50,520 nt of DNA from a virus: IMG/VR virus record IMGVR_UViG_3300010938_000056, positions 1 through 50,520 of that record; one strand, 5' to 3'. Made by a program: the position numbers and the translations under genes. Positions 20,079 through 50,520 of the stretch are shown here, piece by piece; position 1 is the first letter of the stretch, and each line of letters starts with the position of its first letter. The notes below the pieces were generated by a model that saw only the letters and a list, made by a program, of their open reading frames with translations, did not search any database and had not been told where the DNA came from.

Positions 20079-22109
20079 ATGGCTTTCTTCTCCAGAAAAG
20101 AAAAGCGTGAGCTTAAAAAGCTTAGTAGAATTCAACGCACTGGTAGTACTGGTGTGTTTAGTGGTGATATTGAAGAGGTACGTAGTGGAAACATTTCTTA
20201 TATAGCATTCACGCTTACTTCAATAAATGCTGCAAGTATTCAAAATAATAAGGTTGTTCTATCTAATGGCATCTGCACTGTTTGGAAAAGAAAGGCAGAA
20301 ATTGATGATGGATATTCCGGTCTTCCAGACGAGAAAGCAGCAGGTACTGAGTTAGTCCCAGATCGTTATGATAATGGAAAGTGCTTCAAAATAAGGGCGT
20401 GGAATGCATCAAAGGAAACAATTCCAGCTTGTACATATGTAAAGGTTGCACAGGATGTTAGTGGTGATTTGTATATAATCGAGGTGTTTGCAACTCAATC
20501 CACAACAACTTCTACAACAAAACCATGCAGCAGCAAGAGGTGTAAGTGGATATGGAATTCGAGTACCAATAAATGGGCGCTGGATAAAAATGAATGCACT
20601 ACTACTAGCACGTCAACATCAACATCAACTACAAGTAGTGGAAGTACTACAACAACCGAATATTGCGGCTGCCCAACTACAACAACAAAACCTCCAAAGT
20701 GTGAATGTACTTATCCAGATTTTTGTTGTGATAATGGTGAGTGCGGCCCAACTGAATCTGAAATCTGTACTTATACCAGGTGTTCTAGGAACCCACCAAA
20801 GTCAAAAGTAAATTGCAACACAACAACTAGTTCAACAACTACTTCGACAAGTACAAGTGAAACCACAACAACTAGCGAACCGACAACCACTCTTGAGCCT
20901 ACTACAACTTTAGAACCAACAACCACTATTGAACCGACTACAACTACGAGTGAACCTACCACAACAAGTAGTGAGCCGACAACTACTACTGATGATGGTA
21001 CTGAATGTGGTCAATGTGGTTGGAGGTTTAATGCACTAGGTAGTGTAGAGAATCAATTTAATAATTGTAGAGATGGTTGTTCTTGTCCTTTAGCACATAA
21101 TGGGAACCCATGTTCAGAAATAGTATTAAATTGTGTAAGACCTTCAACATCAACTTCACCGTCTCCTTCTTGTAATTATGATTGTAGGTATATATGTGAT
21201 CCTGCAAGTGGGTGGATACTAGTACAATCCGGTTGTTCGACTGGATGTGGATGTAAGCCACCAACTGAAGATTGTAGTGAATGTGGTAGCGAAACTTATG
21301 TTCATTGTTCATCAATATCTGATGGTGGTGGCGACGGTTCAACAACTACTAGTGAAACCACTACAACTAGCGAACCAACAACTACTCTAGAACCTACTAC
21401 AACTTTAGAACCAACAACCACATCATCATCGACAACTAGTACAACTCCAGAATGTCAGGATAAAAAATGTGTTTGGAAATGCAATAATGGTGAGTGGGAG
21501 CTAAAGTCGAATCAATGCCCTGAAAATTGTGATTGCTATCAACCTAATGAAGGATGTGTTGGAGATTGCACAACCGCCAAAACTGATTGTTTACCTGGTC
21601 CAACAACAACAAGTTCATCTACAACTAGTACTACGTGGGCATGTTATCAATATAAGTGTGTACCAGTTAATCAACATACTGATCAGGGATGGCTTTATTT
21701 TGATGGAATAGCCTGTAGAAGTGTGGCACAGCCACCGTACGGATCTTGTGAAGAATTAGGGTGCGGTAATGCTGGTGGTACCTTATGTAGATTTTGTAAT
21801 GACCCATGTCCAATACCACGTGATATTTTTATTGATAATTTGTTACAGTATGATCCTAATACAGGTTATACAGGTATACCATGTCGTATACCTCCACCAT
21901 GTGAACAAACAACTAGTACAACTACTGAATCAACTAGTACATCAACTGAACCACCAACCACTGAACCGCCAACTACTCAACCACCAACTACTCAACCACC
22001 AACTACTCAACCACCAACTACTCAACCACCAACTACTCAACCACCAACTACTCAACCACCAACTACTCAACCACCAACTACTCAACCACCATCAACATCA
22101 ACAAGTTAA
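20079..22109 (+). CDS. Mucin-like Thr/Ser/Pro- and Cys-rich virion protein
   Basis: The 676-residue product begins with a beta-rich domain (about 1-145) that could attach it to the virion. Long Thr/Ser linkers then alternate with at least five Cys-rich modules; I count about 51 Cys. Linkers include repeated E-P-T-T-T-L units. The C-terminus is eight copies of P-P-T-T-Q plus related units, encoded by a nearly perfect 15-bp tandem repeat. This is the composition of O-glycosylated mucins. The next three genes encode a GalNAc-transferase-like enzyme, a sulfotransferase and another glycosyltransferase, so this protein is the obvious candidate substrate. Ribosome binding site: AAGGGATAG. Confidence 0.7.
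   Translation: MAFFSRKEKRELKKLSRIQRTGSTGVFSGDIEEVRSGNISYIAFTLTSINAASIQNNKVVLSNGICTVWKRKAEIDDGYSGLPDEKAAGTELVPDRYDNGKCFKIRAWNASKETIPACTYVKVAQDVSGDLYIIEVFATQSTTTSTTKPCSSKRCKWIWNSSTNKWALDKNECTTTSTSTSTSTTSSGSTTTTEYCGCPTTTTKPPKCECTYPDFCCDNGECGPTESEICTYTRCSRNPPKSKVNCNTTTSSTTTSTSTSETTTTSEPTTTLEPTTTLEPTTTIEPTTTTSEPTTTSSEPTTTTDDGTECGQCGWRFNALGSVENQFNNCRDGCSCPLAHNGNPCSEIVLNCVRPSTSTSPSPSCNYDCRYICDPASGWILVQSGCSTGCGCKPPTEDCSECGSETYVHCSSISDGGGDGSTTTSETTTTSEPTTTLEPTTTLEPTTTSSSTTSTTPECQDKKCVWKCNNGEWELKSNQCPENCDCYQPNEGCVGDCTTAKTDCLPGPTTTSSSTTSTTWACYQYKCVPVNQHTDQGWLYFDGIACRSVAQPPYGSCEELGCGNAGGTLCRFCNDPCPIPRDIFIDNLLQYDPNTGYTGIPCRIPPPCEQTTSTTTESTSTSTEPPTTEPPTTQPPTTQPPTTQPPTTQPPTTQPPTTQPPTTQPPTTQPPSTSTS
21946..22096 (+). 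repeat. 15-bp tandem repeat encoding P-P-T-T-[EQ]
   Basis: CCACCAACTACTCAA and close variants repeat about ten times in a row, in frame, at the 3' end of the mucin-like gene. The near identity of copies points to recent expansion and variable copy number. Confidence 0.9.
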
Positions 22110-24053: not shown

Positions 24054-24734
24054 ATGATGGTCAGATTTACAAGCTATAATGCTAAGATTGAGTACCTTGA
24101 AATACCAAAAGCAGCAAGTACTTCAATTAAAGCAGCTTTATTGATGGCTGATGGAGTTAAGTGGGAAAAAGAGATTCAGGTCCATGTCCACAATCATTTC
24201 AAAGAGATAAGTCATGTAGTACCATCTTTGTGTTTCACGTTTGTAAGGAATCCGCTAGAAAGATTTATTTCATGTTTCATTGACAAATCTAGAAATGGGT
24301 ATTTTGATTCTGTGATGAAGTGGTATGTACCAATTCGCACAATCGAAGAGTTTTCAAATTACGTGTGGCATCTTATAAAGAATGGAAGCAACAATGATCC
24401 TCATTTAAGACCACAAGTAGACATCCTGAGAAAGAAATATAAGGTTAAAGGTGATTGGGATATTGCACATAGGGAAGTGGTTATTGGTGATAGTGTTTAT
24501 GAAGTTCCGGTCGAAATCTATCCATTTGAACTTCTCAATGCTGGGTGGAAGAAATTACAAGCTCATGTCGAAAACTCCACGATTGGAAAAGCTAAGCTGC
24601 CTGATCTACAATTATTGAATAAGACGAAGTATGATGGTGAAGTGGAAGTTCCAGATAAGGTGAAAGACATCATAACGACTTTGTATGCCGATGATTTCAA
24701 GTTAATTGAAGAAGTAGGAGATGCTTATGAGTAA
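24054..24734 (+). CDS. Carbohydrate sulfotransferase (Sulfotransfer_2 type)
   Basis: The 226-residue product would transfer sulfate from PAPS to a sugar hydroxyl. The 5'-phosphosulfate loop is I-P-K-A-A-S-T-S-I-K (about 17-26). The 3'-phosphate site is F-T-F-V-R-N-P-L-E-R-F-I-S (about 61-73), with the Arg and Ser in their conserved places. ATG 24054 lies behind AAAGGAG, one base after the previous stop, and the gene overlaps the next one. Its neighbours are two glycosyltransferases and a mucin-like protein, so a sulfated glycan on the virion or on the host surface is the likely product. Confidence 0.82.
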   Translation: MMVRFTSYNAKIEYLEIPKAASTSIKAALLMADGVKWEKEIQVHVHNHFKEISHVVPSLCFTFVRNPLERFISCFIDKSRNGYFDSVMKWYVPIRTIEEFSNYVWHLIKNGSNNDPHLRPQVDILRKKYKVKGDWDIAHREVVIGDSVYEVPVEIYPFELLNAGWKKLQAHVENSTIGKAKLPDLQLLNKTKYDGEVEVPDKVKDIITTLYADDFKLIEEVGDAYE

Positions 24735-25650
24735 TGAAAAGGTCAGTTGCTTGTTGACAACTTACAATAGATACCCAGAGTATGGGTTCATAGTTGATGA
24801 AGCTGTGTATAGCTTCATAGTACAAGATTATGAGGATAAGGAGCTTCTAATCATAAATGACACACCTGGGCAAGAACTTTATATTGATGAGGAGGTAGTT
24901 AGAATTCTTGGTGGTGATCCGAGCCAAATTAAAATTTTCAACTTAGATGAGAGGTTCTCTTCTCTTCCAGAGAAAATAGCATGGGGAGTTGAACAAGCAA
25001 CGGGTGATTGGTTAATGCGATGGGATGACGATGATATTTGTCTTCATAAAAGAATTTCTATCAGTATGGAAGCGGTGAACTCGCTTAAGAGATTGGAATG
25101 GAGATGTGAGAATTACGTGTACTTCAGGATCACTCAGATTGCTGATTATAGTCAGGTGCTTTCTCAAGAAAGTAGGTATAAGATGTCATTAACAAGTGTG
25201 AACCATGCATACCCAACTATCGTCTATAATCCTGCAAATACGCATGTAATGAGTATATGGAATAGAAAAGTTCTGGATGGGAAGCGGTATCCTGGAATTG
25301 ACAGTTTATCTGGAGTTGAAGATCAAGCATTTAACAATTACCTGAGAAAGATGGGATATGGAGATCGAGGGAATGCATTGAAACCTGAATATATATTCTA
25401 TATTTATAGATGGGGCGTGAGTCCCCGTCATCTTAGTGGAATTGGTGGATGGGAGCATAGCGACAGGTTTTATAAAGAGATAGGGAATCTTGCAGTTGAA
25501 AAAGGAAAGTTTGAAATTAAGCCTAGATGGTTGTATAATTATAACTTTGTACTTAGTAGAGCTATTGAAAATCTTAAGGGGAAAATCAAGAAGAATGAAG
25601 AGCGTGCTATTGAGAAGGCCAGAATTGAGGAAAGAGTGAATCCTGAGTAG
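24727..25650 (+). CDS. Glycosyltransferase family 2
   Basis: The 307-residue product starts at ATG 24727, behind TAGGAG inside the sulfotransferase gene. It has the GT2 opening S-C-L-L-T-T-Y-N-R, then D-K-E-L-L-I-I-N-D, and the metal-binding W-D-D-D-D (100-103). A G-V-E-D-Q-A acceptor segment follows near residue 200 and a charged coiled tail at the end. It would add a sugar from a nucleotide donor. Tight overlap with the sulfotransferase implies one pathway. Confidence 0.82.
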   Translation: MSNEKVSCLLTTYNRYPEYGFIVDEAVYSFIVQDYEDKELLIINDTPGQELYIDEEVVRILGGDPSQIKIFNLDERFSSLPEKIAWGVEQATGDWLMRWDDDDICLHKRISISMEAVNSLKRLEWRCENYVYFRITQIADYSQVLSQESRYKMSLTSVNHAYPTIVYNPANTHVMSIWNRKVLDGKRYPGIDSLSGVEDQAFNNYLRKMGYGDRGNALKPEYIFYIYRWGVSPRHLSGIGGWEHSDRFYKEIGNLAVEKGKFEIKPRWLYNYNFVLSRAIENLKGKIKKNEERAIEKARIEERVNPE

Positions 25651-28128: not shown

Positions 28129-28148
28129 AACCCCTCCGAATGGGGGTT
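28129..28148 (+). terminator. Hairpin after the structural operon
   Basis: AACCCC (28129-28134) pairs with GGGGTT (28143-28148), with an 8-nt loop. No T-run follows, so it may be an RNA-stabilising or partial terminator hairpin. It overlaps the -35 box of the next promoter. Confidence 0.4.
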
Positions 28149-28174
28149 GACAGCGGTGCCGCACCATATACTAT
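28147..28174 (+). promoter_or_regulatory. Candidate sigma70-like promoter
   Basis: TTGACA (28147-28152) and TACTAT (28169-28174) have a 16-bp spacer. TATACT (28167-28172) is a second possible -10. The -10 lies in a small palindrome, CCATA-TAC-TATGG. It would drive the leader and the MoxR operon. Confidence 0.5.
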
Positions 28175-28277
28175 GGGGGCATGCTGGTGTGCCCACACTA
28201 TGGCCTGTCCCGTGCCGCGGCGGTGCCCCACCGCGTTGCATTATGGTATGGTGTAGGAATCAGTAAATTAAGCTATC

Positions 28278-28311
28278 AACCCATACGGTAAGGTGCCGTA
28301 TGGGTTTTTTT
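28278..28311 (+). terminator. Strong terminator/attenuator in the MoxR leader
   Basis: An 11-bp perfect stem (AACCCATACGG with CCGTATGGGTT) and TTTTTTT lie 28 bp upstream of the MoxR start and downstream of the only evident promoter. Further hairpins (GTGTG-CC-CACAC and GCGGTG-CCC-CACCGC) precede it, so the whole 28147-28311 leader looks like a regulated attenuator. Confidence 0.8.
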
Positions 28312-28338: not shown

Positions 28339-29409
28339 ATGAAGGACAATGTTTATCTGGCTGCCAAGATGATTGTTGAATATAACATGAATCTTGCTGA
28401 GCAGGATGGGAATAAGCAAGGCTATCTATGGCCTTGTTTTGTCGGACTAACGGGCAGTGGAAAAACTGCCCGTGCCGAAAAGCTTGCAAGTGAGTTGGAG
28501 TTGAAGCAGCACAAGTTGCTGCTTCAGACAATGAATCCAGAAGAAGTTGGTGGGATTCCTAAAGCAAAAGAAGGCACTATTGAATGGTGCCTTGATGCAT
28601 GGACTGAAGAAAGTTCATGCATCATCTTGGATGAGTTAGATAAGCCGGATCGTGATCATTGGTCCACTATTCTTTCGCTTTTGACGGATAGGAAAATCCG
28701 TAATAAGCAATTAAAAAATTCAGTGTTTGTGGCTGCAATGCAGCCAGTTGACATTGAGATGTTTCTTGCTGAAGAAACTGGGAAAGCGCTTAGTGCGCGT
28801 CTTATCTTTCTCCCAGTTGATGCTAATGAAAGCTATAATTTCGTTAGCAGCCGCCATAAACGGCGGAATATCTTTCATATCAATCAAAAAATCCAATTGC
28901 CGGTTTTGCCGTTTATTACGGCTCGTCAACTGGATTGGCTTGCTGGGTTCTATGATACTATGAACCCAGACAAAGAAATCCTCGAACTAGTGTTAAGTGG
29001 GGTGTGCAACCCCGATAACAAAGAAAAGGTCTTGGAGTGGCTCCAAGACAAAGAAGAAGTGTTGGAGCCTTCTGAATTATTGAGGGTTCTGGCTAAAAAA
29101 CCATCTCTATTGGATGAGATGGATTTAGCAACCGTGAACATTCTGTGGCAGAATGCTGCCACTGCTTTTGGATGGACAGAGGAAGTCCTTGAAAAAGTTC
29201 TCACAAGGATCACTTGTGAGAATGAAAGGAGTCAATCGTTTGAGGTGATGAAAAATCTCGCTGACAATCTGATGGCGTCGGCGGCTGACGAGAAAGGCTA
29301 TAAGTCTTTCGTTGAGCCATTGACTTATGAACAGTGGTGCAACGTGATTGACCGCGTTAGCAAAAACGTGGTCGAGTACTTCACTTCCAGGAAGGAGGTG
29401 AAGAAATGA
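28339..29409 (+). CDS. MoxR-family AAA+ ATPase
   Basis: The 356-residue product starts at ATG 28339 behind AAAGGAG. Walker A is G-L-T-G-S-G-K-T (36-43) and Walker B is C-I-I-L-D-E-L-D (94-101), followed by the sensor and lid regions usual for MoxR. MoxR ATPases act as chaperones with VWA-domain partners. The next gene, overlapping by ATGA, encodes exactly such a partner. The pair's target in phage infection is unknown. Confidence 0.82.
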   Translation: MKDNVYLAAKMIVEYNMNLAEQDGNKQGYLWPCFVGLTGSGKTARAEKLASELELKQHKLLLQTMNPEEVGGIPKAKEGTIEWCLDAWTEESSCIILDELDKPDRDHWSTILSLLTDRKIRNKQLKNSVFVAAMQPVDIEMFLAEETGKALSARLIFLPVDANESYNFVSSRHKRRNIFHINQKIQLPVLPFITARQLDWLAGFYDTMNPDKEILELVLSGVCNPDNKEKVLEWLQDKEEVLEPSELLRVLAKKPSLLDEMDLATVNILWQNAATAFGWTEEVLEKVLTRITCENERSQSFEVMKNLADNLMASAADEKGYKSFVEPLTYEQWCNVIDRVSKNVVEYFTSRKEVKK

Positions 29410-30695
29410 GTGCTTATAAGCTGTACGACTTATTTCCAGTGGAAATTAGCCACTGGATGAAAAAGTATGTGAATATTCGTTGGGACAATAGTGTTCCAAC
29501 GGCAGCGGTGTACCTATCTGATAAAGATGGGTACAACGTGCTTCTGAATCAGCAGTTTATGGATAAACTGTCTGATGAAGCGAAAAAAATGGTGATTCTC
29601 CACGAAGTGAGTCATATTATTCGTGGAGATTGTCTAGTAATGAAGAACGTTGAGCATCCAGGCATTTGGAATGTTGCTAGCGATGCTCACATTAACAGAC
29701 AGATTGGTGATATTGAAGCTCTAGAACAAGAGTCAGGGATGACTTTTGTTAAGTACGAGAGGATCAGGAAAGAAAATTGGCCGGAAAACATTCCGGCCAC
29801 CAAGACAATTTACAAATTATTGAGTGAAGGCATGGATGCTGATTCTCAGAATAGTCAAGGAGGTGGTCAGGAAGGGAGTTCTGAAAAGAAAGACGGCAAA
29901 GGAAATAGCCGTCAAAATAGTGATTCTGGCAAGGAAGCCAATTCTCAAAGCGGAGGAGATTCTAACTCCTCTTCTAATGACCAAAGCAGCAAGGATGCTG
30001 GAAGTGGTGGTCAGAGCGAGGAAGAATATGCCCTTTCTTCTGATGTGAAGGGCACTGAAGGAGATTATCAAGCGTGCAAGGAAAAGCACGCTGAGACTAT
30101 CTTAACTGCCCCAAAACAATTCAATGCTGGGGCAAATATTAAGGTAGGGAAGTCGCAAACTGTTGTGCAAAAATGCACTGATCCCTACCTTATCTTGGTT
30201 TTGAGGAATCTCTTGAAGAATGTGGTTCCTCGTTACGGAACCACGAAAGTAAGAACTAGAACGTGGGCAAGGGAGAATCGTTCTAGTTCGTATTTCCGCG
30301 GGCATCTAAGGCAGCGAAGAATTAAGGTGGTTGTTGCCTTGGATGTTAGTGGTAGCATGGATGCATATGTTCCGAGGATACTTGGAATTGCGAGTGAATT
30401 GAAGGATAAGTTAGATGTGATTCTGATCGTTTGGGCTGATAGTGCTCAAACGATCAAGTCAGTCAACAATGACTGGAATGTTGGTGGAGGTACCAACATC
30501 AATCCAGTTATCGAATTGATTGACAAAAATATGTCCGATGTCAGTATCGTAATTACTGACGGGCATTTTAATACCGAGATGAAGAAACTGCCCAAATCTC
30601 CAGTGATTTGGGCATTGGCAGGCGAACATGCGACTAGTGATATGATCATTAGTCGCGGTAGGGATAAGATTGTGAAGGTGAAGTATGAAGATTAA
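29406..30695 (+). CDS. Metallopeptidase-like and VWA-domain protein, MoxR partner
   Basis: The 429-residue product has an N-terminal zinc-metallopeptidase-like domain with H-E-V-S-H (66-70; DUF2201-like). A Ser/Gly/Asn/Gln-rich low-complexity linker (about 145-215) follows. The C-terminal VWA domain has the metal-ion-dependent adhesion motif D313-x-S-x-S (D-V-S-G-S) and a later T-D-G-H. Such DUF2201-VWA proteins occur with MoxR ATPases in bacteria and phages. The ATPase probably remodels the VWA-bound target or activates the peptidase. Translation is coupled to MoxR. Confidence 0.82.
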   Translation: MSAYKLYDLFPVEISHWMKKYVNIRWDNSVPTAAVYLSDKDGYNVLLNQQFMDKLSDEAKKMVILHEVSHIIRGDCLVMKNVEHPGIWNVASDAHINRQIGDIEALEQESGMTFVKYERIRKENWPENIPATKTIYKLLSEGMDADSQNSQGGGQEGSSEKKDGKGNSRQNSDSGKEANSQSGGDSNSSSNDQSSKDAGSGGQSEEEYALSSDVKGTEGDYQACKEKHAETILTAPKQFNAGANIKVGKSQTVVQKCTDPYLILVLRNLLKNVVPRYGTTKVRTRTWARENRSSSYFRGHLRQRRIKVVVALDVSGSMDAYVPRILGIASELKDKLDVILIVWADSAQTIKSVNNDWNVGGGTNINPVIELIDKNMSDVSIVITDGHFNTEMKKLPKSPVIWALAGEHATSDMIISRGRDKIVKVKYED

Positions 30696-30936
30696 ATTTC
30701 ATGGGACTAGCTTCATCTATACGGAGCAGGAAAATATCGAACATCTGTTCAAGTTGGAAAATGACTCTATAACTTTATGTTTGGACTCAAGGTCGGCCAA
30801 CAAAAAAATATGCTTGGTCGATAAGGATGGGGATAAACATGTCATGGAATTTCGTGATTATGGTACATACGCAATCAAATATAAGCAAGAAATTCTAATT
30901 GCTTGTTTTAACAAAATAGTGAATAAGGGATTGTAG
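30685..30936 (+). CDS. Small paralogue, MK[VI]K family, member 1
   Basis: This 83-residue product starts inside the end of the VWA gene (11-bp overlap), so it is coupled to it. It follows the family plan: M-K-I-K strand, central I-T-L-C-L, then a V-D-K-D-G-D turn in place of the usual E-x-G, and a final hydrophobic strand. It is among the most divergent members. Confidence 0.65.
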   Translation: MKIKFHGTSFIYTEQENIEHLFKLENDSITLCLDSRSANKKICLVDKDGDKHVMEFRDYGTYAIKYKQEILIACFNKIVNKGL

Positions 30937-30939
30937 CAT

Positions 30940-31185
30940 ATGAAAATTAAACCTGATGGTGATGTTGATCTAGTCGTGGTCAAGGATGAAAACGGCAGGT
31001 ATGTGCTCTCAAAGAATGCAGAGCACGTATCATTCTCATCAAAATGTGGCATTCCGAATAATAAGCAATTTGTTGTAAATGAGGATAATCATGTTGCAAA
31101 GAAAGAGCTGACTTACAGTGGTGGGTTTCACTTCATATTTAAGTATTGGTGCGTTATCTGTTATTTGGATAAGACACCCAACTAG
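30940..31185 (+). CDS. Small paralogue, MK[VI]K family, member 2
   Basis: This 81-residue product begins M-K-I-K-P-D-G-D 3 bp after the previous gene. The middle V-S-F-S-S and V-V-N-E-D-N-H-V turn align with the family. It ends with a hydrophobic, Cys-containing strand (W-C-V-I-C-Y-L). Function is unknown. Confidence 0.65.
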   Translation: MKIKPDGDVDLVVVKDENGRYVLSKNAEHVSFSSKCGIPNNKQFVVNEDNHVAKKELTYSGGFHFIFKYWCVICYLDKTPN

Positions 31186-31196
31186 TGAATAAATAA

Positions 31197-31270
31197 GGGG
31201 CTGTAGCTCAATTGGTTAGAGCAGAGGACTCATAATCCTTTGGTTCTCGGTTCAAGTCCGAGCAGCCCTA
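31197..31270 (+). tRNA. tRNA with CAU anticodon (Ile2-like or elongator Met)
   Basis: A 74-nt cloverleaf fits fully: acceptor 31197-31203 with 31263-31269 (first pair G-U), D stem GCTC/GAGC, anticodon stem GAGGA/TCCTT with loop CTCATAA, T stem CTCGG/CCGAG with loop TTCAAGT, and discriminator A; CCA is not encoded. The CTT-TGGTT variable part resembles tRNA-Ile2, whose CAU is modified to read AUA. AUA is common in this genome, so Ile2 is favoured, but Met cannot be ruled out. It lies between short genes on the same strand. Confidence 0.9.
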
Positions 31271-31291
31271 ACTTAGAAAGGAGTTAGGTGT

Positions 31292-31504
31292 ATGAAGGTT
31301 AAGACTTATAACCAGTGTGTGTACGACAAAAGTCGGTACTACGTGATCAAGCGATATGGGCAGTGTATTGAGCTATGCAACGCATTGTCCGAGAAATTAT
31401 ACGGTACATTGATTAAAGTGCTGGATAATGATATTGAGGTCGAAAAAACAAATACGGCCCATAAGATTCTGTTCCAGAAGGACTCTATGGAGGAACGGGA
31501 GTAA
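31292..31504 (+). CDS. Small paralogue, MK[VI]K family, member 3
   Basis: This 70-residue product starts at ATG 31292 behind AAGGAG, just after the tRNA. It is closely related to the next gene: both have N/D-Q-x-V-Y-D-K, a V/E-L-C-N-x-L-S motif and a V-x-x-S/N-D-N strand. The pair is a recent duplication within the wider family. Confidence 0.7.
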   Translation: MKVKTYNQCVYDKSRYYVIKRYGQCIELCNALSEKLYGTLIKVLDNDIEVEKTNTAHKILFQKDSMEERE

Positions 31505-31518
31505 AAGGAGTTATGAGT

Positions 31519-31731
31519 ATGAGGGTCAAAACTAATGACCAGCGTGTGTATGACAAATGTGGATATAATGCAATAAACCAAATTGGACATACCATAGTGC
31601 TTTGTAATGGACTATCTAGTAAGCAATTTGGAGTGGTTGTTATCATATCTGACAATGGTGTAAAGAAATCGAAGGGACACACTGGGTTTAGAATTTTGTA
31701 CTCAAAAAACTCTCTGGAGGTGCGAAAATGA
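31519..31731 (+). CDS. Small paralogue, MK[VI]K family, member 4
   Basis: This 70-residue product starts at ATG 31519, eight bases after AAGGAG; an ATG two codons earlier is too close. It is the nearest relative of the gene at 31292 (shared Y-D-K, L-C-N-x-L-S and I-L-Y/F-x-K-x-S). The stop overlaps the next start (ATGA). Confidence 0.7.
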   Translation: MRVKTNDQRVYDKCGYNAINQIGHTIVLCNGLSSKQFGVVVIISDNGVKKSKGHTGFRILYSKNSLEVRK

Positions 31732-32267
31732 AGATGCTATTTATCCATGAGTGCATGCTGAATCTCATCCAGAGAATTGAAAAGGAAAGTTATAGGGAGT
31801 TCTTGTATGATAAAGAATTCCACGGTGAATTTGGAAAGTTACCAACAATCAGTGATATGGATGAGGTGATCCAAAAAATTCAGTATCTACGTGAGATACT
31901 GAACGATAAGCATGCAGAGGTGTATGGATATTTGTTCTATAATGGGTTGGTGGTCTTAGCAATGAATCATCGGGATTTTATCAGGATTGAGCAGATTGAT
32001 AGTAGCAAGTTCATGGTTATTCCAATCAAAGATTATGTGTACGAGAAGTACAACGACGTTGTTAGAATTATCTACAACACGATTAACGAAACAAGAAGAA
32101 GGTTGGGTGAAGAAGCCGTTGGTCGAGTTATCCAACGGGTTTTAGATAATCCAACCGAATACAGAAACGTGGTAGATGCTGTGTTTTCGTATTTCACAGC
32201 AGTGATCGGTAGTTTAATCTATAATTGCATTGAGATTGTGGGGGTGGAACATTGGCAGCAAAATTAA
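31728..32267 (+). CDS. Hypothetical helical protein
   Basis: The 179-residue product starts at ATG 31728 behind GGAGG. It is mostly helical with a short beta insertion (G-Y-L-F-Y-N-G-L-V-V-L-A) in the middle. No motif is recognised. It interrupts the array of small paralogues and overlaps the next gene by 16 bp. Confidence 0.7.
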   Translation: MKMLFIHECMLNLIQRIEKESYREFLYDKEFHGEFGKLPTISDMDEVIQKIQYLREILNDKHAEVYGYLFYNGLVVLAMNHRDFIRIEQIDSSKFMVIPIKDYVYEKYNDVVRIIYNTINETRRRLGEEAVGRVIQRVLDNPTEYRNVVDAVFSYFTAVIGSLIYNCIEIVGVEHWQQN

Positions 32268-32644
32268 AACTGATCGACTTCATCAAGAAGTATGAAGTCT
32301 CGCTATTAACTTGCTATGAGCTAGTTGATAGCATAAGGGAGAAATGCCACGTATGGAGATGTATGATCATCAGGCTCTCAAGGAAGAGTACAATAAAAAT
32401 AAAGAGCGATGTGATTCCAAATCTTGGGGACGTTCTATTGAGACTGTCAGAATACATTGACGTTCCGGGATTGGAAGAGTTTATCAGGAAAAGAGAGGGT
32501 TGGGCTGATGGTAGAGAAATAGATAAGGGTATTTTGAAGGAATGGAGGGTCAGAAGGGCGTACTTAGTTAGGATGGAAAAATTATTTGGAATTGAAGGCG
32601 CCCAAGAACTATCCTCGTTGCATCGAGAAATCAAAGAAGGCTAG
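32252..32644 (+). CDS. Hypothetical basic helical protein
   Basis: The 130-residue product probably starts at TTG 32252 after a GGGGGTGG tract, overlapping the previous gene. It is helical and basic, with an R-x-S-R-K-S segment and several Cys near the start. No family is recognised. Confidence 0.6.
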   Translation: MAAKLKLIDFIKKYEVSLLTCYELVDSIREKCHVWRCMIIRLSRKSTIKIKSDVIPNLGDVLLRLSEYIDVPGLEEFIRKREGWADGREIDKGILKEWRVRRAYLVRMEKLFGIEGAQELSSLHREIKEG

Positions 32645-32646
32645 TT

Positions 32647-32925
32647 ATGAAAGTGTGGACGACAATTGGAAATATGTTCTGCAAAGATCATAAATGGAGG
32701 CTAATAGGACATGTGTATTATGACAAAGAAGATAAAGGGAATATCCCAGTTGTAGCGATTGTAGATAGTAAAATAAGTTTAGCTGGAGAAAGGACGACTA
32801 AAGGTCACAAACTTTTTGAAATTGACGAAAACGACCATGTAGAAAAGCATTACGACATGCAGTGCCAAAGAAATTGCTTGTCGTTTCTAGGGAGTGAGCG
32901 GAAGCTCATAACTAAGGTCAAATGA
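32647..32925 (+). CDS. Small paralogue, MK[VI]K family, member 5
   Basis: This 92-residue product shows M-K-V-W at the start, I-S-L-A-G-E in the middle and F-E-I-D-E-N-D-H-V, which align with the family motif h-x-L-x-G then I-x-E-x-G. It is one of the longer members. Confidence 0.68.
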   Translation: MKVWTTIGNMFCKDHKWRLIGHVYYDKEDKGNIPVVAIVDSKISLAGERTTKGHKLFEIDENDHVEKHYDMQCQRNCLSFLGSERKLITKVK

Positions 32926-32952
32926 AAGGCATTTCTCTCCGAGAAAGCAAAC

Positions 32953-33204
32953 ATGAAAATAAGAACTGATAAGGCTGGTGACTGGGTATACGTTACGGAC
33001 GACGGGAGTATTTCAAATGTGATAATTGGAGATACTTGTAGCTACTATTTAATGGGAAGAGCCATTATAAATGGAGATCGGTTAAGAGTGTCAGTTAATG
33101 AGTTAGGGGAAGTAGATAATAGTAGGTCCCATGTTCAAGCACAGATAATTAGGTTGTTTAATGGGACTCAAAAGAAGACTCTTACTGTGGAGGGATTTAT
33201 ATGA
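32953..33204 (+). CDS. Small paralogue, MK[VI]K family, member 6
   Basis: This 83-residue product shows M-K-I-R, central Y-Y-L-M-G-R and V-S-V-N-E-L-G-E-V, a clear match to the family core. It overlaps the next gene (ATGA). Confidence 0.7.
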   Translation: MKIRTDKAGDWVYVTDDGSISNVIIGDTCSYYLMGRAIINGDRLRVSVNELGEVDNSRSHVQAQIIRLFNGTQKKTLTVEGFI

Positions 33205-33473
33205 TCGTGAAAGTGGTTGTCGGAGAAACTTCTGTACGTGTTTATTATTCACAGAATGAGCGGAAAGTGTTTCATAGTCATATTTATGGTAATGATTTGA
33301 TAGGAGATTCAACTGACCCATATAACACTTATGACCATGAAATTGATGAAACAGGTAAATTGTCAAAAATAAATAGATATAAAGATGTAAATATGATCTC
33401 TGTGTCTCGGGATGAAAAAGTTCTTACGCTATCTGGTAAATTTGACAAATTCTTGCTAATAGTGAGGAGATAG
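33201..33473 (+). CDS. Small paralogue, MK[VI]K family, member 7
   Basis: This 90-residue product shows M-I-V-K-V, central N-D-L-I-G-D and H-E-I-D-E-T-G-K-L. It is coupled by ATGA overlap to the upstream gene and lies 3 bp before the next. Confidence 0.72.
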   Translation: MIVKVVVGETSVRVYYSQNERKVFHSHIYGNDLIGDSTDPYNTYDHEIDETGKLSKINRYKDVNMISVSRDEKVLTLSGKFDKFLLIVRR

Positions 33474-33476
33474 CTT

Positions 33477-33716
33477 ATGAAAGTGAAAATGCTCCATCTT
33501 GGGCGTATATTGTATGTGGTAAGAAATAATGATAATGTGCTAACGTTTGACAGGGACGCCCACGAATTGATAGGTGGTGAAACTGGCAATAATGGTTCAA
33601 TATACCATTTTATAAATGAGATGGGGAATATGTGCATGACCGTGAATTCCAAGAGGATAAACACGATCACGTTTCTAAATGAGTTTGGGGGTTTTGTGGT
33701 TATGGTGAGGATGTGA
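33477..33716 (+). CDS. Small paralogue, MK[VI]K family, member 8
   Basis: This 79-residue product shows M-K-V-K, central H-E-L-I-G-G and H-F-I-N-E-M-G-N-M, then two hydrophobic strands (T-I-T-F-L and F-V-V-M-V). It is a good representative of the family core. Confidence 0.72.
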   Translation: MKVKMLHLGRILYVVRNNDNVLTFDRDAHELIGGETGNNGSIYHFINEMGNMCMTVNSKRINTITFLNEFGGFVVMVRM

Positions 33717-33723
33717 GGAATGT

Positions 33724-33975
33724 ATGAAGATTATTGCCGATAATTCTGAAGGGGTCAAATTCGTTAGCAGTTTTTTCAGCAAGCGTATTGTAGTACTGAG
33801 TTCTAGAGCTAGTTTTACCTTATTAGGTGGAGATGTTTCTGAGAAGGATGCTTCTTGTTATTTGGTAACTGAGTATGGGGAGATTTGGGATTTACAAAAA
33901 TATGTGAATATGAATAGCATTATGTTGGTCAGGGAAGATAGTGGCACAATAATTAAAGTGCTAGGTGCAAAATGA
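33724..33975 (+). CDS. Small paralogue, MK[VI]K family, member 9
   Basis: This 83-residue product shows M-K-I-I, F-T-L-L-G-G and Y-L-V-T-E-Y-G-E-I, with a final I-I-K-V-L strand. The start is behind GAGGAATGT; its stop overlaps the next start by 4 bp. Confidence 0.72.
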   Translation: MKIIADNSEGVKFVSSFFSKRIVVLSSRASFTLLGGDVSEKDASCYLVTEYGEIWDLQKYVNMNSIMLVREDSGTIIKVLGAK

Positions 33976-34214
33976 AAGTGAGAATCATTCAATGTGAATC
34001 GGGCAGAGTTTCGTATAAAGGCACTAAAGGAGTTGTCGTTACGACAACTGAAAAGAGTTTAAGGTTAATTGGCCGTAATAACAATGAGTGCAATTATCAG
34101 TTATGGAGCATAAATGAAGAAGGGAAAATGCATTTACTTGAGCAAAGACAACCTGGGTGTAGAGTGTCTTTTTGGGCAGTCGGTAACGTATTTAAGATTT
34201 CGGTGAGTATATGA
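33972..34214 (+). CDS. Small paralogue, MK[VI]K family, member 10
   Basis: This 80-residue product shows M-K-V-R-I, L-R-L-I-G-R and W-S-I-N-E-E-G-K-M. It is linked by ATGA overlaps on both sides, so members 9-11 are translated in tandem. Confidence 0.72.
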   Translation: MKVRIIQCESGRVSYKGTKGVVVTTTEKSLRLIGRNNNECNYQLWSINEEGKMHLLEQRQPGCRVSFWAVGNVFKISVSI

Positions 34215-34456
34215 TCATTAAGGTTAAAAATGGTGGGTGTGTCACTGGTGACAAGGAAAAGTGTGTTGTTATCGAAACTAAAAACTGTATTCACTTATAT
34301 GGTGAAAAAAACCTTAAAGTTAGTATTGCAAGTATGTATAAGTACTATGAAAATGGGGGGACTATAAATCCAGTATCAACCAGTTTTGAGTCTGTTTTAA
34401 CTTATGGTTGTGATAATGATCACAACAAGTACGTATCAATATCAATTCTTGAGTGA
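34211..34456 (+). CDS. Small paralogue, MK[VI]K family, member 11
   Basis: This 81-residue product shows M-I-I-K-V-K, I-H-L-Y-G-E and Y-K-Y-Y-E-N-G-G-T-I. It is most like member 12 (both carry M-I-I-K-[VI]-K-N-G at the N-terminus). Confidence 0.7.
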   Translation: MIIKVKNGGCVTGDKEKCVVIETKNCIHLYGEKNLKVSIASMYKYYENGGTINPVSTSFESVLTYGCDNDHNKYVSISILE

Positions 34457-34466
34457 GGAGTGTGTT

Positions 34467-34715
34467 ATGATCATCAAAATTAAGAACGGAATTGGATCTG
34501 TTGATGGCTATGATAAGAATGTCATCGTATGGACCAACTTATCTATCCATTTAGTGAGCCAGAGTAGTGCAGCACCAAACTTTGTGATAATAAATCAGTT
34601 CTATAATGACGAAAAATCAATCTATGAGTCAACCAGCAAGTATAAGTTTTGTATTAGTTTCTTTTGTGATGATAATAATCAGGATAGTCATGTGTCTGTG
34701 CTAGCAATTAAATAG
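34467..34715 (+). CDS. Small paralogue, MK[VI]K family, member 12
   Basis: This 82-residue product starts at ATG 34467, after GAGGAG; a frame beginning 63 bp earlier has no ribosome binding site. It has M-I-I-K-I-K-N-G, I-H-L-V-S-Q and a late S-V-L-A-I strand. It appears to be a recent duplicate of member 11. Confidence 0.7.
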   Translation: MIIKIKNGIGSVDGYDKNVIVWTNLSIHLVSQSSAAPNFVIINQFYNDEKSIYESTSKYKFCISFFCDDNNQDSHVSVLAIK

Positions 34716-34775
34716 CTGACAATAACTATAACTATAATGGAAATCATATTTCCGCTAAAAAAGCAAGAGCACAAA

Positions 34776-35060
34776 ATGAGAGTTTTCATTGAAGGTAGTC
34801 ACGTAAGGCCGAGAAAGGATTTAACCGTAATGCATCTACTTGATAACACGTTCTCATTGATAGGAAAAGACATGAACAGAATTAGAGGCACAAAAGTATT
34901 GAGCATCAATGGTAATGGCTGTGAACTGTCTGTGACATCAACAATATATCGTTCGTTGATCGGAATTGACAAAAAGAAAGACGAGCTTACGATATTCGTA
35001 GTGTCAAAAACTCTGAAGGACCATAAAATGGACAAACTGGTGTACACCCAAATCAAGTAG
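34776..35060 (+). CDS. Small paralogue, MK[VI]K family, member 13
   Basis: This 94-residue product, from ATG 34776, gives M-R-V-F at the start, like the family; an in-frame ATG at 34737 has no ribosome binding site either, so the start is unsure. It has F-S-L-I-G-K-D and V-L-S-I-N-G-N-G, then T-I-F-V-V. Confidence 0.62.
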   Translation: MRVFIEGSHVRPRKDLTVMHLLDNTFSLIGKDMNRIRGTKVLSINGNGCELSVTSTIYRSLIGIDKKKDELTIFVVSKTLKDHKMDKLVYTQIK

Positions 35061-45769: not shown

Positions 45770-46048
45770 ATGAAGGTTGTAGTGTCAGAAGACACGGGCC
45801 ATATTTCATGCAATGGATGGCATTGCCTTTATTTCAATGATAATTTTGGAGTTGTCCATATATGGGGGTCAGTAATAAATAAATCTTGTAGAGAGATTCA
45901 TATTCAGAGTGACGAATCTTTGAGTTTCTATAAGATGATAGGAGTATCTTCAGGAGTGTCATTTAGAAGAACAATGACTGAAGTTCGAGATAAAGAAGAT
46001 TTTCAATCTGCGAAGCATTCTATAGAAGGAGGAAGAAGTGAAAGTTAG
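45770..46048 (+). CDS. Small paralogue, MK[VI]K family, member 14
   Basis: This 92-residue product shows M-K-V-V, V-H-I-W-G-S and C-R-E-I-H-I-Q-S. Closest to the member at 46338 (both carry C-x-G/D-x-x-C-L near the start, G-[IV]-V-H-[IL]-x-G-S and C-R-E-I). The C-terminus overlaps the next start by 11 bp. Confidence 0.7.
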   Translation: MKVVVSEDTGHISCNGWHCLYFNDNFGVVHIWGSVINKSCREIHIQSDESLSFYKMIGVSSGVSFRRTMTEVRDKEDFQSAKHSIEGGRSES

Positions 46049-46334
46049 AGTCTTTCCTCCAGTTGGGCATGATAAGTATCATAGTGAATTGGGTCGTGTA
46101 AAGTGTGAGGACAAAACTTGTATGACGATGTGCATTGTCCAAAACAACATTTGTTTATGGAGTTCTGATGACAAAGAGAGTAGAGCTAGGGTTGATATAC
46201 GTGAAGACAGAGTAGATTTTGAAAGCATGTTTCTTCACACCAAGTTAAGACTATCATTCTTGGTATCATCTATGATTATTTATTTAATTGAAGACAAAAA
46301 CCGCTTTATGAAGGCTAAGACTAAAAAGGAATAA
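46038..46334 (+). CDS. Small paralogue, MK[VI]K family, member 15
   Basis: This 98-residue product starts at GTG 46038, behind AAGGAGG. It shows M-K-V-R-V, I-C-L-W-S-S and V-D-I-R-E-D, then a hydrophobic strand. It is more divergent than its neighbours. Confidence 0.66.
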   Translation: MKVRVFPPVGHDKYHSELGRVKCEDKTCMTMCIVQNNICLWSSDDKESRARVDIREDRVDFESMFLHTKLRLSFLVSSMIIYLIEDKNRFMKAKTKKE

Positions 46335-46337
46335 GGT

Positions 46338-46616
46338 ATGAAAGTTAAAGCAGTAGGAGATGGTCGCTGTATTACGTGTGATGGATATAATTGTCTGTTT
46401 GTCAACGATGCTCCTCATGGGATTGTCCATTTATTTGGCTCAAATGGAAATAGACAATGCCGTGAGATTTATATTCATGACAACGAAATCTCAGAGGTAG
46501 ATCGTAAAATAAATGCGCCAATAAGACTGACATACAGGAAAGACTCTGTTGTGGTCCATGTAATTGAAGACGATTGGGACTATGAGTGGTATTATGTAAA
46601 AAGGAGAAAGAAGTGA
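46338..46616 (+). CDS. Small paralogue, MK[VI]K family, member 16
   Basis: This 92-residue product shows M-K-V-K, V-H-L-F-G-S and C-R-E-I-Y-I-H-D-N. It forms a close pair with member 14 and overlaps the next start by ATGA-like GTGA. Confidence 0.7.
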   Translation: MKVKAVGDGRCITCDGYNCLFVNDAPHGIVHLFGSNGNRQCREIYIHDNEISEVDRKINAPIRLTYRKDSVVVHVIEDDWDYEWYYVKRRKK

Positions 46617-46867
46617 AAGTCGCAAACTTCAATGGATATTATAAAGTAGAAACTGGGCGAGGACTAACATCCATAATGTATTCAGTAGGAACAATAATGT
46701 CTATACAAGGCAGATTCAGTAACAGTCTAGTCACGTATTTGATTGACAATGACGACTCAATAAGAAACACAGAAAATAGAAAATATAAAGTATGTATCAG
46801 GTGGCGCACACCAATAGCATCAGTTAGAAACTCCTTAGTTTTAATGGACGTAGCAATCGAACAATAG
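46613..46867 (+). CDS. Small paralogue, MK[VI]K family, member 17
   Basis: This 84-residue product starts at GTG 46613, behind AAGGAG, giving M-K-V-A. It has M-S-I-Q-G-R and Y-L-I-D-N-D-D-S, then V-C-I-R-W and a final V-L-M-D-V strand. It is the last member before the DHFR gene. Confidence 0.65.
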   Translation: MKVANFNGYYKVETGRGLTSIMYSVGTIMSIQGRFSNSLVTYLIDNDDSIRNTENRKYKVCIRWRTPIASVRNSLVLMDVAIEQ

Positions 46868-49565: not shown

Positions 49566-49790
49566 ATGAGGAAGGTCGAAATTTTTCCGATCAGAACAAC
49601 GGGCCAAAAAAAATACCCGTTTGAAAAGCTTGAGATTGGCGAGCCTTATCTCTTTGAACGTGGTAAGGACTTCACCTGCAAAGATTCTAGCTTTATTTGT
49701 GCTGCGAAAGAATGGGCTAGGAGAAATGGAAGGAAAGTTCTTACCAGGAAAGAGAAAGATGGTGTAATTGTGATGGTATTGGAAAAATAG
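49566..49790 (+). CDS. Small phage protein of the L-[EV]-[IV]-G...DG-V family
   Basis: The 74-residue product starts at ATG 49566 behind GGGAGCAGG. The pattern is F-E-K-L-E-I-G-E-P-Y-L-F, a helix with A-A-K-E-W-A-R-R-N-G, and a final K-D-G-V-I-V strand. It is a clear paralogue of the next gene and resembles the minus-strand product at 1045-1272. Similar small phage proteins (P-F-x-x-L-x-V-G-x-x-F) are widespread and uncharacterised. Confidence 0.75.
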   Translation: MRKVEIFPIRTTGQKKYPFEKLEIGEPYLFERGKDFTCKDSSFICAAKEWARRNGRKVLTRKEKDGVIVMVLEK

Positions 49791-49830
49791 TGCTTATGTT
49801 CTGTTGGTTTTAATTCAAAGGAGTTTAGCA

Positions 49831-50136
49831 ATGCGAGTCCTAAATGAGTTGCCGAAGATTCAGAATAGGGGTTTTGGCAAGCGTGGAAAGCGAAAGAGCA
49901 AGTTCGATGAGCTTGAAGTAGGTAAGGTGTATTTGTTTGTGCGTGGTGAGGATTATCAAGTAAAAGAAGCTAGCTTTGTCAGTAACGTGCATACCTATGC
50001 AAGGAGCCGTGGTTATAAGGCTCATGTAAGGAAAACTGATGAAGGCGTGGCTGTGCAGTTCTATATTCCTTCCTCAGAGAACACTGAGCAAGTGATTGAT
50101 AATCTGGATGAAGTGAATGTGGAGAGCATCTTGTAA
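49831..50136 (+). CDS. Small phage protein, paralogue of the 49566 product
   Basis: The 101-residue product starts at ATG 49831, behind AAAGGAG; a frame 27 bp longer has no site. It has a basic N-terminal tail (K-R-G-K-R-K-S-K), then F-D-E-L-E-V-G-K-V-Y-L-F, a Y-A-R-S-R-G-Y helix and E-G-V-A-V-Q strand. The basic tail would suit nucleic-acid binding. It ends the + strand genes; a strong terminator follows. Confidence 0.75.
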   Translation: MRVLNELPKIQNRGFGKRGKRKSKFDELEVGKVYLFVRGEDYQVKEASFVSNVHTYARSRGYKAHVRKTDEGVAVQFYIPSSENTEQVIDNLDEVNVESIL

Positions 50137-50487: not shown

Positions 50488-50520
50488 AGCTGGCGGACCA
50501 GCCGGCGGACCAGCCGGCAG
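50488..50520. repeat. Start of the 70-bp repeat array (other side of the junction)
   Basis: Bases 50488-50518 are identical to 42-72 of the window, the interior of the 70-bp unit. This is the same array seen at 1-402, cut by the assembly break. The last two bases do not continue the unit exactly. Confidence 0.85.

What the first reader, a model, noticed from the sequence alone, without database searches (positions are those of the whole stretch)
30685..35060. Tandem array of at least 13 diverged small paralogues starting M-K-[VI]-K
Seen: a run of 70-94-residue genes, many linked by ATGA overlaps, nearly all beginning M-K/I-[VI]-K. Most share a central h-x-L-x-G motif, a following I/V-x-[DNE]-[ED]-x-G turn and hydrophobic end strands, yet identity between most pairs is low. 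Recent pairs (31292/31519 and 34211/34467) show that duplication is continuing. Known: arrays of small, fast-changing phage genes often hold anti-defence or host-takeover proteins. Inference: one small beta-rich fold has been amplified and diversified, perhaps against varied host targets.
Basis: partly seen in the sequence, partly recalled or inferred. Interest (0 to 1): 0.72.

Follow-up and report, generated by a model that had tools for sequence, protein, structure and literature searches.

The report
Phage array of diverged small β-proteins
An uncultured, orphan tailed phage carries about 13 (perhaps 17) small, strongly diverged, mostly related genes of unknown function in two clusters; they are probably an old, diversified set of accessory proteins that act on host targets, but no database relative or experiment shows what they do.

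Summary
The observation largely holds. Between 30685 and 35060, 13 small ORFs (70-94 aa), most with clear ribosome sites, lie head to tail.

Relatedness is graded. m08-m12 are firm homologues; so are the pairs m03/m04 and m13/m14. Links between these subgroups are statistically real but modest. m01, m02, m07 and m15 are marginal one by one. Neighbours resemble each other more than distant members do, as tandem duplication predicts.

"Recent" duplication is wrong: the pairs share only 48-56% of nucleotides, synonymous sites are near or at saturation, and there is no DNA repeat.

I found a second cluster of four similar genes at 45770-46867.

AlphaFold gives an all-β meander at low confidence (pLDDT 67), with no fold match. 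No sequence relative turned up in Pfam, PHROGs, NCBIfam, phages, plasmids, or limited scans of viral and genome contigs.

The array directly follows a MoxR ATPase/zincin-vWA gene pair, in the non-structural half of an orphan siphophage-like genome.

Best reading: an old, diversified family of small accessory binding proteins for host takeover or counter-defence. The array is shown; its function is inferred.

The parts
30685..30936 (+). m01, 83 aa (MKIK); overlaps the end of the vWA gene by 11 nt; marginal family member
   Evidence: ORF; LOO 35/2000; p 0.04-0.25 under strict nulls
30940..31185 (+). m02, 81 aa (MKIK); probable member, closest to m08 (Z about 5)
31197..31270 (+). tRNA-Met (CAT) inside the array
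   Evidence: ARAGORN; Rfam RF00005 72.8 bits
31292..31504 (+). m03, 70 aa (MKVK)
   Evidence: pair with m04 E 2e-19, Z 29
31519..31731 (+). m04, 70 aa (MRVK); resembles n03 of the second cluster (Z 6.2)
31728..32267 (+). m05, 179 aa, not a family member, interrupts the array
   Evidence: profile score no better than shuffles
32252..32644 (+). m06, 130 aa (TTG start), not a family member; weak PHROG match to MazG-like (E 3e-4)
32647..32925 (+). m07, 92 aa (MKVW); marginal member, Z about 5 to m08
32953..33204 (+). m08, 83 aa (MKIR); core member
   Evidence: LOO 0/2000
33201..33473 (+). m09, 90 aa (MIVK); core member, ATGA overlap with m08
   Evidence: LOO 0/2000
33477..33716 (+). m10, 79 aa (MKVK); core member; AlphaFold model, all-beta
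   Evidence: LOO 0/2000; pLDDT 66.6
33724..33975 (+). m11, 83 aa (MKII); core member
   Evidence: LOO 0/2000
33972..34214 (+). m12, 80 aa (MKVR); core member that bridges to m13/m14; ATGA overlap with m11
   Evidence: LOO 0/2000; best non-self hit of the m13/m14 profile
34211..34456 (+). m13, 81 aa (MIIK); ATGA overlap with m12
   Evidence: pair with m14 E 2e-9
34467..34715 (+). m14, 82 aa (MIIK; the mechanical ORF starts at 34404)
34776..35060 (+). m15, 94 aa (MRVF; an upstream ATG at 34737 is possible); probable member
45770..46048 (+). n01, 92 aa (MKVV), second cluster
   Evidence: Z 21 to n03
46038..46334 (+). n02, 98 aa (GTG start, MKVR), second cluster
   Evidence: Z 6.1 to n03, 4.0 to n01
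46338..46616 (+). n03, 92 aa (MKVK); best non-self match of the m03/m04 profile
46613..46867 (+). n04, 84 aa (GTG start in a GTGA overlap with n03); matches the m profile better than 4998/5000 shuffles
28147..28306 (+). consensus promoter (TTGACA-16-TACTAT) followed by a strong intrinsic terminator (28278-28306): boundary between the tail-fibre operon and the MoxR/array operon
   Evidence: sequence
28339..29409 (+). MoxR-type AAA ATPase (AAA_5), SD AAAAGGAG; first gene of the unit that runs into the array
   Evidence: Pfam; sequence
29406..30695 (+). zincin metallopeptidase-vWA protein (DUF2201_N + DUF2201); m01 starts within its last codons
   Evidence: Pfam; homologue in phage AR9

Best explanation
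The region is an old, tandemly duplicated family of small phage proteins with a satellite cluster 11 kb downstream, so about 13-17 copies in one genome of about 50 kb. Shown: packed, translatable genes on one strand; firm homology inside subgroups (m08-m12; m03/m04; m13/m14; n01-n03) and modest but repeated links between them; neighbours most alike; no shared DNA repeat. Probable: one 7-8-strand antiparallel beta-meander whose core and tight turns (hxLxG, NExG) are kept while surface residues and charge (about -2 to +8) have diverged. Inferred: the array is read with the MoxR/zincin-vWA genes in the non-structural (early or middle) half, and each product is a small binding protein that attaches to a different host factor (host takeover) or defence component (counter-defence), duplication having supplied raw material for new targets.
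For: Homology and packing; T4 control. Low identity with unlike charges. All-beta predictions for m10 and n03. Placement after a terminator that ends the structural genes, next to MoxR-vWA and before replication genes. In phage AR9 the homologous AAA/zincin-vWA pair follows an annotated early promoter. Precedent: several AcrID1 paralogues in one archaeal virus genome, transcribed early among small genes (PMC11065993); close AcrID homologues bind their target through almost non-overlapping contacts (PMC7689449).
Against: No member matches an anti-defence or takeover family. Cross-subgroup homology is weak under the strictest null and by HHalign (per-pair p 0.03-0.07). Structure models are low confidence. 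No expression data, no known host, no orthologous array in another phage. Low identity alone does not prove selection for new targets; dN/dS cannot be estimated at this divergence.
Confidence: 0.42

Rival explanations
1. Several small unrelated families share a region and a start motif: m08-m12, m13/m14, m03/m04 and n01-n03 are separate local duplications, and m01, m02, m07 and m15 are unrelated small genes.
For: Links between subgroups are modest (Fisher 0.0007-0.02) and HHalign finds no confident link. The MK[VI]K start can inflate scores.
Against: Different subgroup profiles independently rank the other members above decoys (MWU 1e-5 to 1e-7), and the links stay at p 0.002-0.02 after trimming the start. 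Bridges exist: m12 to m13/m14, m04 to n03, m13 to n01-n03.
Confidence: 0.25
2. The small proteins are substrates, adaptors or targeting subunits of the adjacent MoxR AAA/zincin-vWA machine, which remodels or cleaves partners selected by the variable small proteins.
For: Tight coupling: the vWA gene overlaps m01 by 11 nt, and no + strand terminator-like site lies between the end of the vWA gene and m09. vWA domains capture peptides for MoxR remodelling, and MoxR-vWA systems elsewhere carry variable partners (PMC7159879).
Against: The same pair in phage AR9 has no small-gene array after it. The second cluster lies 15 kb away. A published proposal for the phage pair is virion assembly and processing (PMC7824862).
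Confidence: 0.12
3. They are small nucleic-acid-binding or transcription-modulating proteins, like the roughly 35-copy zinc-ribbon expansion reported in Bacillus phage G.
For: Lineage-specific expansions of putative phage transcription factors are known (PMC7824862). Some members are basic (m04, m12 and m15, pI 9.7-9.9).
Against: Most members are near neutral. No HTH, zinc ribbon or other nucleic-acid-binding match; the RNase P p29 match to m12 is E 0.013, below cut-off, one of many tests.
Confidence: 0.12
4. They are minor virion or decoration proteins.
For: Small all-beta proteins are common in virions (general knowledge); the MoxR-vWA pair has been proposed to help virion assembly.
Against: They lie outside the packaging-to-tail block (1660-28094), after its terminator, among replication genes. 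Such copy number and divergence is unusual for a decoration protein (general knowledge).
Confidence: 0.07

Closest known systems
AcrID1 family of archaeal rudiviruses and relatives (anti-CRISPR, several paralogues per genome)
   Same: Small, fast-diverging viral proteins present as several paralogues among small non-structural genes (PMC11065993)
   Different: No sequence relation detected; this is an all-beta prediction in a tailed-phage genome; no anti-CRISPR activity known
T4-type clusters of small early 'host takeover' genes
   Same: Tightly packed 60-110 aa genes of unknown function beside replication genes
   Different: The T4 genes tested are mostly unrelated to each other; here one family fills most of the cluster
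Zinc-ribbon expansion (about 35 copies) of Bacillus phage G
   Same: Lineage-specific expansion of one small domain in one phage (PMC7824862)
   Different: Different domain; no zinc-ribbon match in the array proteins, and several members have no or one cysteine
MoxR AAA + zincin-vWA pair of jumbo phages (AR9 g028/g029; phrog_1314)
   Same: The two genes just upstream of the array are this pair
   Different: AR9 has no small paralogue array after it; this genome is about 50 kb, not jumbo

Membership tests
Tandem paralogue array (gene family expansion) | Adjacent same-strand genes with significant sequence similarity | tested here: met
   m08-m12, m03/m04, m13/m14 firm; similarity decays with distance
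Tandem paralogue array (gene family expansion) | All 13 members homologous | tested here: inconclusive
   m01, m02, m07 and m15 marginal; subgroup links p 0.0007-0.02
   Best pair 56% nt identity; synonymous sites saturated; no DNA repeats
Known anti-CRISPR or anti-defence families | Significant match to a family model or solved structure | tested here: not met
   Pfam, PHROGs, NCBIfam and PDB sequence search: none; AcrIIA4 E 0.38 and Vip4 E 0.027 treated as chance
Known anti-CRISPR or anti-defence families | Inhibits a defence system | not testable with these tools
   Needs an assay
MoxR-vWA ternary conflict systems (VMAP, iSTAND, FtsH, beta-propeller) | MoxR + vWA pair | tested here: met
   AAA_5 and DUF2201 matches, but of the zincin-vWA phage type
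MoxR-vWA ternary conflict systems (VMAP, iSTAND, FtsH, beta-propeller) | Third core component (VMAP, iSTAND, FtsH or beta-propeller) | tested here: not met
   None found by Pfam among the neighbours; bpMoxR match below cut-off

The most novel reading that the evidence does not exclude
A previously undescribed all-beta phage protein family works as a diversifying binder repertoire: one scaffold copied 13-17 times in a single 50-kb phage, each copy tuned to a different host or defence protein, possibly presented through the co-encoded MoxR/zincin-vWA machine.
Probability: 0.12. Interest if true: 0.75.

Novelty: new member of a known kind. Interest (0 to 1): 0.42.

Why it matters
If the members share one fold but bind different targets, this small genome is a natural library of diversified binders and a compact test of how phages gain counter-defence functions by duplication. 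It also shows that one family can fill an 'ORFan' region which homology searches would list as unrelated unknowns.

Tried and rejected
Relatives of the array. tblastn of all array proteins against phages and of m08-m12 against plasmids gave nothing significant. Viral-contig scans with flanking proteins gave none; with the polymerase, one unrelated distant hit; with m03/m04, none. Genome-contig scans with n01/n03 and m03/m04 gave none. The core profile over 47 related virus records gave none, but most are distant or partial, so this is weak evidence. Four contigs matching the capsid gene are a near-identical phage (99.98%) and siblings (90-95% nt), but they cover only structural genes.

Family matches rejected as chance: RNase P p29 E 0.013, Vip4 E 0.027, AcrIIA4 E 0.38, VanW-B E 0.043. 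Foldseek against PDB and BFVD: no match below E 0.19, TM at most about 0.4. HHalign between subgroups: P about 0.03-0.07, uninformative.

My first leave-one-out test gave optimistic values for m13 and m03, because their sister stayed in the profile; correct this.

Searches for a published description of such an array found none; the library is partial. A last paper search failed on its input.

Full report
What the window is. It is a 50,520-base virus record. Structural genes run from 1660 to 28094: terminase, portal, head protease/major head fusion, tape measure, sulfotransferase, glycosyltransferase, Mtd_N-like tail genes. A consensus promoter and a strong terminator follow (28147-28306). Then come a MoxR-type AAA ATPase and a zincin-vWA protein, the array, a PD-(D/E)XK nuclease, an AAA_24 ATPase, a family A DNA polymerase, a second small-gene cluster, DHFR and a Toprim/AAA protein. 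Named phages match only at 22-30% protein identity for the two proteins tried, polymerase and head protein. Four contigs are the same phage or siblings, for structural genes only.

The observation. Thirteen small ORFs lie at the stated place, with ATGA overlaps at 31728, 33201, 33972 and 34211. Two larger ORFs (31728-32267 and 32252-32644) and a tRNA-Met (31197-31270) interrupt them. Starts need care: m14 most likely starts at 34467 and m15 at 34776.

Are they related? Pairwise: m03/m04 E 2e-19 and m13/m14 E 2e-9. m08-m12 are firm: each, scored by a profile of the other four, beat all 2000 of its shuffles. A leave-one-out test on 34 T4 small proteins gave one low value. Sixteen of 78 array pairs reach Z>=3, against 20 of 703 T4 pairs; neighbours are more alike than expected (12 of 20,000 permutations; Mantel r -0.44, 0 of 5000). 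For links between subgroups, whole subgroups were held out. Held-out members rank above 322 decoys (MWU 1e-5 to 1e-7). Against shuffles that keep the native start, or with the start trimmed, the combined p is 0.0007-0.02 for the m members. I take one family as likely (about 3 in 4), not proven. m01, m02, m07 and m15 are the least sure.

Second cluster. Profiles of the array pick out ORFs at 46338 and 46586 among 489 window ORFs. This led to four genes, n01-n04 (45770-46867), with MKV starts, a central VHLFG-like strand, DNE-type turns, good ribosome sites and a GTGA overlap. n01-n03 are related (Z 21, 6, 4); n03 resembles m04 (Z 6.2); n04 matches the m profile (2 of 5000 shuffles), while n01, n02 and n03 do not stand out with the profile of all 13. 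The n-to-m link is at best as strong as the weaker subgroup links and is not firm.

Age. The best pair shares 56% of nucleotides, the other 48%; synonymous sites are saturated for both. n01/n03 have dS about 1. No tandem repeat is seen. Duplication is old, not continuing as far as this genome shows.

Structure. AlphaFold for m10 with 10 rows: pLDDT 66.6, strands only. For n03: pLDDT 51, strands only, nine, in a similar order. Foldseek found nothing convincing. I treat 'all-beta meander' as probable and make no fold assignment.

Function. No family match at a credible level; PADLOC was run on the neighbours only, also empty. Context is non-structural. In AR9 the homologous ATPase/zincin-vWA pair follows an early promoter but has no array. 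Multi-copy small accessory proteins in viruses have precedents: AcrID1 paralogues (PMC11065993), and the phage G zinc-ribbon expansion (PMC7824862). The best mechanism is a diversified binder set for host takeover or counter-defence; this is inference. Rivals: separate families, MoxR-vWA partners, nucleic-acid binders, virion proteins.

Verdict. A real, mostly homologous, old array with a likely second cluster, from an orphan phage. It is a new family of a known kind. Interest is moderate because function is open and no sibling array could be found.

Noticed in passing
45770-46867: Second cluster of four small genes with the array's traits, directly upstream of DHFR; not in the finding.
   Followed up: yes
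31197-31270: tRNA-Met (CAT) inside the array; 64 nt of it are 89% identical to a stretch annotated as the integrase gene of Pseudomonas phage phi3, probably just tRNA sequence at an attachment site there.
   Followed up: partly
1-402 and 50488-50520: The same GC-rich 12-bp repeat (AGCCGGCGGACC) stands at both ends, with a 70-bp unit at the left; the contig probably closes or breaks in this repeat. The first 2 kb are 54% GC against 39% elsewhere, and the near-identical contig L002 starts at 1643.
   Followed up: partly
28147-28306: Consensus promoter, then a structured leader of about 130 nt and a 13-bp terminator just before the MoxR gene's ribosome site: terminator of the tail operon, a small RNA or an attenuator (fold z -1.9; no Rfam match).
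   Followed up: partly
28339-30695: MoxR AAA plus zincin-vWA pair, described in jumbo phages, here in a phage of about 50 kb.
   Followed up: partly
24054-25650: Sulfotransferase and family 2 glycosyltransferase genes next to the tail-fibre genes.
   Followed up: no
49566-49790 and 49804-50136: A pair of look-alike small genes (FEKLEIGEPYLF / FDELEVGKVYLF), another small duplication.
   Followed up: no
20861-22091: Short repeats of 15, 18, 21 and 36 bp inside the 676-aa ORF 20079-22109.
   Followed up: no
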